Part shown: positions 25,975-27,402 of the stretch, in pieces
Layout of the letters: every line of letters begins with the position of its first letter
Numbering within the stretch: position 1 is the first letter of the stretch
DNA from: Actinomycetes bacterium
GTDB taxonomy: Bacteria; Actinomycetota; Coriobacteriia; Coriobacteriales; Atopobiaceae
Direction: 5' to 3'
NCBI GenBank assembly: GCA_029546925.1
Contig: JAKPQM010000014.1
Location: 1-64,000 of the forward strand
DNA length: 64,000 bases
Position numbers and translations under genes: made by a program
Notes under the pieces: generated by a model
Told to the model about the DNA's origin: nothing
What the model saw: only the letters and a program-made list of their open reading frames with translations
The model's database searches: none

Positions 25975-26196
25975 CCGAACGTGCCTCGCTCGAATCACCC
26001 AGCGTGCGGGATCCCGCAATACTCGGCTGACCTGTCTCGGCGGTCATTCCGGCGACGTCTACTGGCGCGTGCGCGTGTTCGGGCCGCTGCTCAGGGGTGA
26101 TACCTTCGGGTACGCGTATGCGGAATCTCAGCTGCTCCGCTCTCTGTCAAACGCGCGGGTCCCGAAGACTTGTCCCCGTCAACGCACTGAGTTGAC
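25938..26196 (-). promoter_or_regulatory. ileS leader, T-box-like attenuator
   Basis: The minus-strand leader of about 285 nt has a large hairpin (CUUCGGG paired with CCCGAAG, with inner ACGCG and UUCCGC stems). An AGAGAG motif lies at 26145-26140. Right after the hairpin is GGU-AUC-ACC, with AUC (26101-26099), an Ile codon, as specifier candidate. AGUAGACG and a UGACC/GGUCA stem follow. Then comes an antiterminator option, GCUGGG paired with CCCAGC, competing with the terminator at 25943-25974. This matches the layout of actinobacterial ileS T-boxes. The canonical UGGNACC bulge is not intact, so the assignment is tentative. Confidence 0.55.
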
Positions 26197-26202: not shown

Positions 26203-26263
26203 CCACGCGAGCTCGGGAAGGGCGAGGATTCTTTCACCGCCACGGACTCTGCAAGAGGCCGCG

Positions 26264-26590
26264 CCTCGTGGCGGTACCGCCACGAGGGCTTATCCTGCAG
26301 ATTCCCCCCCCAGGGGGCCTGGCCTCGAAGCGCGTCTTAAGACGTTTCTCCAGCAGAGGTGCCGGTGACTGTACAGTCACTGGGGTCTGTCCTGCGGATT
26401 CGCGATTTCAAGGCTCCCCGCAGGGTCCCTCTCAGCGTGTTTGCCCAGCACGGGTTACGGTGACTGTACAGTCGCCAGGGGCCTTGCTGGGGAAACGCAG
26501 CCTGCGGGCTCCCCTCGCAGCCCGTCTCGAGATGTCCGCCCAGCACGGGTTACAGTGACTGTACAGTCACCAAGGGCCTTGCTGGGAAAA
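26264..26590. repeat. Array of four palindromic units, 95-97 bp apart
   Basis: Three cores TGACTGTACAGTCA begin at 26366, 26461 and 26556, exactly 95 bp apart; the second has one changed end base. A fourth, 24-bp perfect palindrome centred at 26275.5 is 97 bp earlier and carries TGGCGGTACCGCCA. It keeps the GTAC centre and changes both arms in a compensating way. Copies two and three are flanked by CCCAGCA and TGCTGGG, giving a long stem with an internal loop. Between cores lie partly conserved segments, such as CCTGCGG/CCGCAGG and GTCTCGAGATG-like sequence. No gene is inside. The array lies between the divergent ileS leader and the methyltransferase gene. Confidence 0.85.
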
Positions 26591-26609
26591 CGCAGACATC
26601 CTGTATACT
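26579..26609 (+). promoter_or_regulatory. Promoter candidate for the methyltransferase gene
   Basis: TTGCTG (26579-26584), 19-bp spacer, TATACT (26604-26609). The -35 lies inside the right arm of the last palindromic unit, so whatever acts on the repeat could affect this promoter. The spacer is long. Confidence 0.35.
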
Positions 26610-26643
26610 TCTTCAAAAACCGGACCGCCCGATGGAGGTTCCC

Positions 26644-27402
26644 GTGGACAAGCGAAGCTACACCGATATCAACGCCGAGACGATAGGCCGTTGGATCGAC
26701 GAGGGATGGGAGTGGGGCAGCCCCATCTCGCACGAAACATATCTGCACGCCTGCGCAGGTGATTGGGAAGTCAAGCTCACCCCCGTCAGGGCGGTGCCCC
26801 GCGCGTGGTTCGGTAAGCTCGATGGCGCACGGGTGCTGGGGCTCGCTTCGGGCGGCGGCCAGCAGATCCCCATCTTCAAGGCCGCGGGTGCCGAGGTCAC
26901 CGTGCTCGACTACACGCCCGCCCAACTCGAAAGCGAACGCATGGTATCCGAGCGCGAGGGATATGCGGTCGATACCGTCCGTGCTGACATGACCAAGCCC
27001 CTCCCCTTCCCGGATGCCTGCTTCGATCTCGTGTTCAACCCGGTATCGCTCTGCTATGTGCGCGATGTCGAGCCTATCTGGCATGAGGTCGCGCGTGTGC
27101 TCCGGCCTGGCGGGATCCTGCTCACCGGCTTCGACACCATCATCAACTACATCGTCTCGGCCGATGAGAAACACGTCGTTTTCAAGCAGCCTTTCGACCC
27201 CACCGTGAACGAGGACCAGGCAGCGCTGCTCGCAGCCGATGATGCGGGCGTGCAATTCAGCCACAACCTCGACGAGATGCTCGGTGGGCTTTTACGCGCC
27301 GGCTTCTCCATCGATGACCTCTACGAAGATACCAACGGCGAGGGACATCTCCACGACCTCAACATCCAAACCTATCTTGCCGTGCGCGCCATCAAGAAGT
27401 GA
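26644..27402 (+). CDS. Class I SAM-dependent methyltransferase
   Basis: This soluble methyltransferase of 252 residues has motif I VLGLASGGGQQ, the acidic end of strand two in TVLDYTPAQLE, motif II around RADMTKPLPF, and the RVLRPGG post-motif. The GLASGGGQQ form marks a family of uncharacterised enzymes common in Firmicutes and Actinobacteria. The acceptor is unknown. GTG 26644 is preferred because GGAGG sits five bases upstream; an ATG at 26632 overlaps that site and has none of its own. It faces ileS across the palindromic array. Confidence 0.88.
   Translation: MDKRSYTDINAETIGRWIDEGWEWGSPISHETYLHACAGDWEVKLTPVRAVPRAWFGKLDGARVLGLASGGGQQIPIFKAAGAEVTVLDYTPAQLESERMVSEREGYAVDTVRADMTKPLPFPDACFDLVFNPVSLCYVRDVEPIWHEVARVLRPGGILLTGFDTIINYIVSADEKHVVFKQPFDPTVNEDQAALLAADDAGVQFSHNLDEMLGGLLRAGFSIDDLYEDTNGEGHLHDLNIQTYLAVRAIKK

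What the first reader, a model, noticed from the sequence alone, without database searches (positions are those of the whole stretch)
26264..26590. Tandem palindromic array with compensating changes between ileS and a methyltransferase gene
Three TGACTGTACAGTCA cores sit exactly 95 bp apart, about nine helical turns, and a fourth palindrome 97 bp earlier keeps the GTAC centre while both arms change together (TGGCGGTACCGCCA). Compensating changes argue for selection on base pairing or symmetric protein binding rather than chance duplication. The flanking CCCAGCA/TGCTGGG arms add a second stem. It may be a DNA site array for a dimeric regulator, a structured RNA repeat, or a new intergenic repeat family.
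Basis: seen in the sequence. Interest (0 to 1): 0.75.

Follow-up and report, generated by a model that had tools for sequence, protein, structure and literature searches.

The report
Phased palindromic intergenic DNA repeat family
The four palindromes are one array of a previously undescribed repeat that occurs in dozens of gaps between genes in just two closely related Coriobacteriales species, nearly always spaced 95 bp (nine DNA turns) apart; its mutation pattern says it is read as DNA, probably by a protein, and not as a folded RNA.

Summary
They are units of a dispersed intergenic repeat family. I collected 115 units in 62 arrays from the window's genome and its sister species (OH1046). 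Each unit is an imperfect 62-bp palindrome: TTTnCCCAGCA box, 11-bp pyrimidine-rich gap, GACTGTACAGTC core, mirror image. Within arrays the spacing is 95 bp in 45 of 53 cases (94-96 in 52). The family is absent from the other same-genus genomes searched and from about 390 other Coriobacteriia.

The 'compensating changes' do not hold up. The two arms of a unit are no more alike than arms of different units (z = 0.0), and G-T equals A-C opposition (325 vs 338), so there is no RNA strand. Between sister species core and boxes are conserved while the bases between them diverge freely: the signature of a protein-read DNA site. Arrays sit mostly just past gene ends beside functionally unrelated genes, like REP/BIME repeats, but lack REP tags and a linked RAYT transposase.

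Best reading: a new lineage-specific, helically phased DNA-binding-site array family; binding protein unknown. Perfect private palindromes, including the fourth, are best explained by template switching.

The parts
26245..26306 (.). eroded unit 0 (perfect inner palindrome 26264-26287, core TGGCGGTACCGCCA at 26269-26282); right arm resembles the 'B' arm type
   Evidence: its OH1046 counterpart is exactly 95 bp from the next unit
26342..26403 (.). unit 1, 62-bp imperfect palindrome, core 26366-26379, right arm of type B
   Evidence: PSSM 61 bits; nothing at 5 or above elsewhere in the window
26404..26436 (.). 33-bp spacer (spacers are weakly dyad-symmetric in the family consensus)
26437..26498 (.). 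unit 2, core 26461-26474 (TGACTGTACAGTCG), boxes near 26440-26450 and 26485-26495
   Evidence: 80 bits
26499..26531 (.). 33-bp spacer
26532..26593 (.). unit 3, core 26556-26569, boxes near 26535-26545 and 26580-26590
   Evidence: 74 bits
26604..26609 (+). TATACT, a -10-like hexamer (TGTATACT) 10 bp past the last unit, kept in OH1046; any -35 region of the methyltransferase promoter would overlap unit 3
   Evidence: sequence and alignment; no promoter call at the tool's threshold
26632..27402 (+). class I SAM methyltransferase gene downstream (neighbour, not part of the repeat)
   Evidence: Pfam Methyltransf_11, E 1e-19
26028..26191 (-). T-box leader of ileS, lies between ileS and the array; not part of the repeat
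   Evidence: RF00230, 34 bits, E 9e-6, below gathering score
23092..25911 (-). ileS (neighbour, not part of the repeat)

Best explanation
The region is one array of a lineage-restricted interspersed DNA repeat. Each 62-bp unit is a two-fold symmetric, three-part site: a central GACTGTACAGTC core and two mirror-image TTTnCCCAGCA boxes about two helical turns (20.5 bp) either side. Units are strung at 95 bp, so cores and boxes fall at about 2, 5 and 2 turns (9.05 turns per repeat), on one face of the helix. I infer that a multimeric DNA-binding protein of these two species reads the sites on double-stranded DNA and bridges neighbouring units, and that the arrays work as protein-bound DNA (architectural, boundary or supercoiling sites) mostly just past gene ends. 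Unit number changes in 95-bp steps by tandem gain and loss. Occasional template switching between inverted arms makes the private perfect palindromes. Shown: family, spacing, symmetry, arm independence, constraint on core and boxes, location. Inferred: a protein, its bridging, and the architectural role.
For: Left and right arms have the same column composition and vary independently (within-unit arm identity 19.99 of 31 vs 19.98 for shuffled partners, z 0.0; G-T 325 vs A-C 338). Spacing is 95 in 45 of 53 adjacent pairs, 96 in six, 94 in one, and 84 (about one turn less) in one, despite a mean identity of 0.59 between 157-bp two-unit stretches in the same genome. Between orthologous units divergence is 0.08 in the core and 0.06 in the box, against 0.31 in the gap between them and 0.22 in four spacers. 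The gap keeps its purine/pyrimidine class (Y at 0.92-0.98 for positions 19-22, R at 0.98 for 23, Y at 0.99 for 25). Arrays are intergenic, lie nearer the upstream gene's 3' end (17 of 21 tandem arrays in G003, p 0.007; 12 of 18 in G000, p 0.24; median 47-53 bp vs 194-199 bp to the next start), and adjoin unrelated housekeeping genes.
Against: No binding protein was identified and no binding experiment exists. The conserved positions were partly chosen by the detection profile, although shared arrays were paired by their flanks. About ten arrays are missing at the matching site in the sister species, so no single site is essential. Three of the 18 ortholog pairs are nearly identical, suggesting some recent DNA exchange. 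The 95-bp period may partly reflect ancestry of the tandem unit and not helical phase.
Confidence: 0.6

Rival explanations
1. A REP/BIME- or MITE-like selfish repeat: a non-autonomous mobile element spread by a transposase acting in trans, with the conserved blocks being transposase recognition sites and no host function.
For: Dispersed, intergenic, biased to 3' ends as described for REPs (PMC3733652); restricted to two sister species; present/absent differences at matching loci; an empty site of 29 bp in G002 where G000 carries a 157-bp array; outer arms of three two-unit arrays are 31/31 perfect inverted repeats that stop at the unit edge.
Against: No GTAG/CGTC tag (4 and 4 of 124 flanks); no unit near any Y1/RAYT-type gene examined, and G002 has six Y1 genes but no units; no target-site duplication seen; almost no recent copies (best same-genome pair of separate arrays 0.88, the next 0.78); core and boxes stay conserved in place at shared loci.
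Confidence: 0.25
2. Structured RNA: each unit folds as a hairpin in a transcript (terminator, stabiliser, small RNA or riboregulator).
For: Strong palindromes, many just past stop codons; a few units are perfect private palindromes.
Against: No covariation above shuffles on 45 units (72.4 vs 72.2% paired) or on 104 units (z 0.0); both-arm changes in orthologs about as expected by chance (26 vs 22.6); G-T not favoured over A-C; no Rfam match to the units; found between convergent, tandem and divergent genes.
Confidence: 0.06
3. Operators of one transcription factor with a regulon.
For: Tripartite dyad operator shape; the window array abuts a conserved -10-like hexamer upstream of the methyltransferase gene.
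Against: Neighbours have unrelated functions (sigma-70, PNPase, RNase J, glutamine synthetase, ATP synthase epsilon, FtsH-like, TypA and others); several arrays lie between convergent genes with no promoter to act on.
Confidence: 0.08

Closest known systems
REP / BIME repeats of Proteobacteria (PMC3733652, PMC2817692)
   Same: interspersed, intergenic, palindromic, biased to gene 3' ends, arrays with regular linkers, lineage-specific; REPs and BIMEs are reported to bind gyrase, IHF and Pol I (PMC2817692)
   Different: 62-bp fully symmetric units instead of 20-40 bp hairpins with a GTAG/CGTC tag; one fixed 95-bp period; no RAYT gene flanked by units; arms evolve independently
MITEs / elements with terminal inverted repeats
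   Same: the commonest array is a 157-bp two-unit body, and in three cases its outer arms are perfect 31-bp inverted repeats
   Different: the terminal repeats are private to each copy, no target duplication was seen, and copies are old and diverged
Chromosome-wide protein sites such as matS/MatP or parS (works like; compared from general knowledge, with matS in PMC3330122)
   Same: a few dozen palindromic sites scattered over the genome next to unrelated genes
   Different: much longer tripartite sites in phased arrays, restricted to two species; domain-wide distribution could not be tested on contigs
CRISPR arrays
   Same: repeats alternating with spacers of constant length
   Different: 1-4 diverged repeats per locus, many loci, spacers share a weak consensus, no Rfam CRISPR match above the gathering score

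Membership tests
REP/BIME | dispersed intergenic palindromes preferring 3' ends of genes | tested here: met
REP/BIME | GTAG or CGTC tag at one end of a 20-40 bp palindrome | tested here: not met
   62-bp symmetric unit, no strongly conserved flank columns; GTAG 4 and CGTC 4 of 124 flanks
REP/BIME | cognate RAYT gene flanked by the repeats, co-occurring with them | tested here: not met
   no unit in the loci fetched around Y1_Tnp genes; G002 has six Y1 genes and no units
MITE | terminal inverted repeats | tested here: inconclusive
   perfect outer arms in 3 (30/31 in a fourth) of 42 arrays, 0.15 expected at 28/31 or better; private sequence in each copy
MITE | target-site duplication | tested here: inconclusive
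   none seen at arrays with perfect outer arms; most matching empty loci are not cleanly alignable
Structured RNA element | base-pair covariation in the stems | tested here: not met
Structured RNA element | one transcribed strand (G-U tolerated, A-C not) | tested here: not met
   G-T 325 vs A-C 338; per-unit bias p 0.11
Structured RNA element | transcript over the units | not testable with these tools
   no RNA-seq available
Transcription-factor operator set | related functions of adjacent genes and a promoter-proximal position | tested here: not met
Protein-bound DNA site array | dyad-symmetric motif with conserved blocks and fixed spacing, half-sites evolving independently | tested here: met
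Protein-bound DNA site array | a protein that binds it | not testable with these tools
   no candidate found; a genome-wide gene-content comparison was not done
Chromosome-organising sites (matS-like) | non-random distribution along the chromosome | not tested
   genomes are in about 20 to 142 contigs of unknown order

The most novel reading that the evidence does not exclude
A previously unknown nucleoprotein system of one bacterial lineage: a multimeric protein assembles on tripartite dyad sites phased at nine helical turns at a few dozen intergenic loci and forms short filaments or bridges that organise the chromosome or insulate operon ends. The whole system was gained within one genus.
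Probability: 0.3. Interest if true: 0.75.

Novelty: new variant of a known kind. Interest (0 to 1): 0.52.

Why it matters
It is a compact, well-replicated case: more than 100 natural variants of one site, with exact spacing, in two sister species with many shared loci and with empty loci for comparison. It shows how to tell a DNA-read palindrome from an RNA hairpin by arm independence and strand symmetry. It also makes a concrete prediction (one protein, bound at 9-turn intervals) that a pull-down could settle. If the protein is a chromosome organiser, it would show such a system being acquired recently and spread to a few dozen sites.

Tried and rejected
Structured RNA and compensatory change: tested three ways and rejected. 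RAYT mobilisation: Y1 genes occur in all five genus members regardless of the repeat and carry no units nearby. Regulon: no shared function. A different-sequence version of the array in the sister species G002: none in 400 kb searched de novo for similar tandem palindromes (0 similar pairs, against 23 in the array-bearing regions). Phage or plasmid origin: no match in viral contigs, phages or plasmids. Recombination at the core as the source of outer-arm identity: considered because outer arms of adjacent units correlate (z 3.9 to 4.4) and facing arms anti-correlate (z -2.3 to -3.2). Template switching between inverted repeats, which homogenises arms and can invert the spacer (PMC8604942), explains the outer-arm identity with a known process, so I did not claim a recombinase; the anti-correlation stays unexplained. 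Literature searches for a described Coriobacteria palindromic repeat or a tandem palindrome family of fixed spacing gave nothing relevant.

Full report
WHAT IS THERE. The window holds three 62-bp imperfect palindromes (26342-26403, 26437-26498, 26532-26593) whose cores begin at 26366, 26461 and 26556, exactly 95 bp apart. A fourth, eroded one is centred at 26275/26276, 97 bp before the first. Two cores are exact TGACTGTACAGTCA; the middle one ends in G. Matches to the core are far above chance. The array lies between the T-box leader of ileS (minus strand; RF00230 at 34 bits, below the gathering score, E 9e-6) and a methyltransferase gene, 38 bp before its start.

A GENOME-WIDE FAMILY. A search of the window's own genome gave 72 partial DNA matches on more than 20 contigs. 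The core pattern with up to 2 mismatches matched 42 places, against 0 for the reversed control. I read the surroundings of these places and of the same family in the sister genome G003, and scored them with a symmetric profile. G003 is taken to be Coriobacteriales bacterium OH1046, because contig length and array position agree with RQYE01000001. The final set is 115 units in 62 arrays: 20 of one unit, 32 of two, 9 of three, 1 of four. Background in the window outside the array did not reach 5 bits; arm statistics used units above 35. The set is not a full census: it covers places reached by the searches.

SPACING. In 53 neighbouring pairs the spacing is 95 bp in 45, 96 in six, 94 in one and 84 in one. 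The 84-bp case aligns with an 11-base gap, about one helical turn. Two-unit stretches within one genome are on average only 59% identical over 157 bp, so length is kept far better than sequence. Orthologous spacers were 33 vs 33 in four of six cases and 34 vs 33 in two, while distances to the flanking genes often differ. In OH1046 the eroded palindrome of this very locus sits exactly 95 bp from the next unit.

ANATOMY. The symmetrised consensus has three blocks: TTTnCCCAGCA, an 11-bp gap, GACTGTACAGTC, an 11-bp gap, TGCTGGGnAAA. The gap is variable but keeps its pyrimidine/purine class near the core. The 33-bp spacer has a weaker consensus that is itself two-fold symmetric. Box to core is about 20.5 bp and box to next box about 54 bp, so motifs fall at roughly 2, 5 and 2 turns (inference from 10.5 bp per turn). 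A second arm type (GCGAATCCGCAGGACAGG) recurs, including on the right of window unit 1.

NOT A FOLDED RNA. If arms were selected to pair, the two arms of a unit should match better than arms of different units. They do not: 19.99 of 31 against 19.98 in shuffles, z 0.0, n 104. The pair-counting tool agrees: 72.4% paired against 72.2% shuffled. In 15 ortholog pairs both arms changed at 26 gap positions, 22.6 expected if independent. G opposite T (325) is as common as A opposite C (338), so neither strand is favoured. Template switching between inverted repeats is known to homogenise arms (PMC8604942). A handful of other units are perfect private palindromes near the core (5 against 0.3 expected), and three two-unit arrays have perfect 31-bp outer arms.

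UNDER CONSTRAINT AS DNA. Between orthologous units the core (0.08) and box (0.06) change far less than the gap (0.31) or four spacers (0.22). Three of the 18 pairs are nearly identical between species, probably through recent exchange, and only dilute the contrast. The profile used for detection favours conserved cores, which is a caveat, but shared loci were paired through flanks, and at matching loci without an array no remnant was seen above 8 bits.

DISTRIBUTION AND CONTEXT. With a covariance model over 60 genomes only G000 and G003 matched. With a core-plus-box pattern over 398 genomes of the class the only other hits were single one-mismatch places in two genomes. Viral, phage and plasmid collections gave nothing. 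A de novo scan of 400 kb of the array-free sister G002 found no analogous tandem palindromes of another sequence. A clean empty site shows a convergent-gene gap of 29 bp in G002 that holds a 157-bp array in G000. About 22 arrays are at matching loci in both species, often with different unit numbers (1 vs 4, 3 vs 2, 2 vs 1), and about ten are missing from the other species. Arrays are intergenic, mostly just past a gene end, beside genes of unrelated function.

INTERPRETATION. The data fit a DNA site read by a symmetric, probably multimeric protein, with several sites lined up on one helical face. What the protein is, and whether the arrays organise the chromosome, insulate operon ends or are parasitic, is not shown. 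The closest described class is REP/BIME repeats. Two of the REP features tested, the tag and the linked RAYT, are not met, so I do not file it there. It is a new lineage-specific repeat family that works in a REP-like setting, with unusually strict spacing.

Noticed in passing
window 26028-26191 (-): Diverged T-box leader upstream of ileS; this stretch is also conserved in OH1046 (L053) and in L054, where the palindromic array is absent.
   Followed up: partly
L031 (G000 C15:10814), L135 (G003 C14:105540), L144 (G003 C2:192946): Two-unit arrays whose outer arms are 31/31 perfect inverted repeats ending at the unit edge, while inner arms differ; a fourth array (G003 C14:191430) has 30/31. Each pair is private in sequence, and none of these three arrays is found at the matching locus of the sister species.
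   Followed up: partly
two-unit arrays of G000 and G003: Facing arms of neighbouring units are less alike than chance (z -2.3 to -3.2) while outer arms are more alike (z 3.9 to 4.4); only the second half has a ready explanation.
   Followed up: partly
L146 (G003 C1:322823-324090) and L133 (G003 C13, next to 196575): About 1 kb of extra DNA with a weakly native-looking gene (one with a NERD nuclease-related domain and a zinc ribbon) lies directly beside half units broken at the core.
   Followed up: partly
intergenic DNA of G000 and G003 regions: Other repeat families: GTGACAAGGGGACAGGTCA(T/C)TTGTCAC and CACGATCATCCC / CACGAACATCCC palindromes, several next to the arrays.
   Followed up: no
L031 6018-6386 (+): RNase P RNA gene begins 47 bp after the array at G000 C15:10814.
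   Followed up: no
G000 C63:15874-16641 and G003 C5:822-1582: Arrays nearly identical between the two species although other orthologous units are about 70-90% identical; suggests recent DNA exchange.
   Followed up: no
window 26632-27402: Close relatives of the methyltransferase (about 57-75% identity) are widespread in Clostridia and Coriobacteriia genomes, many from animal guts.
   Followed up: no
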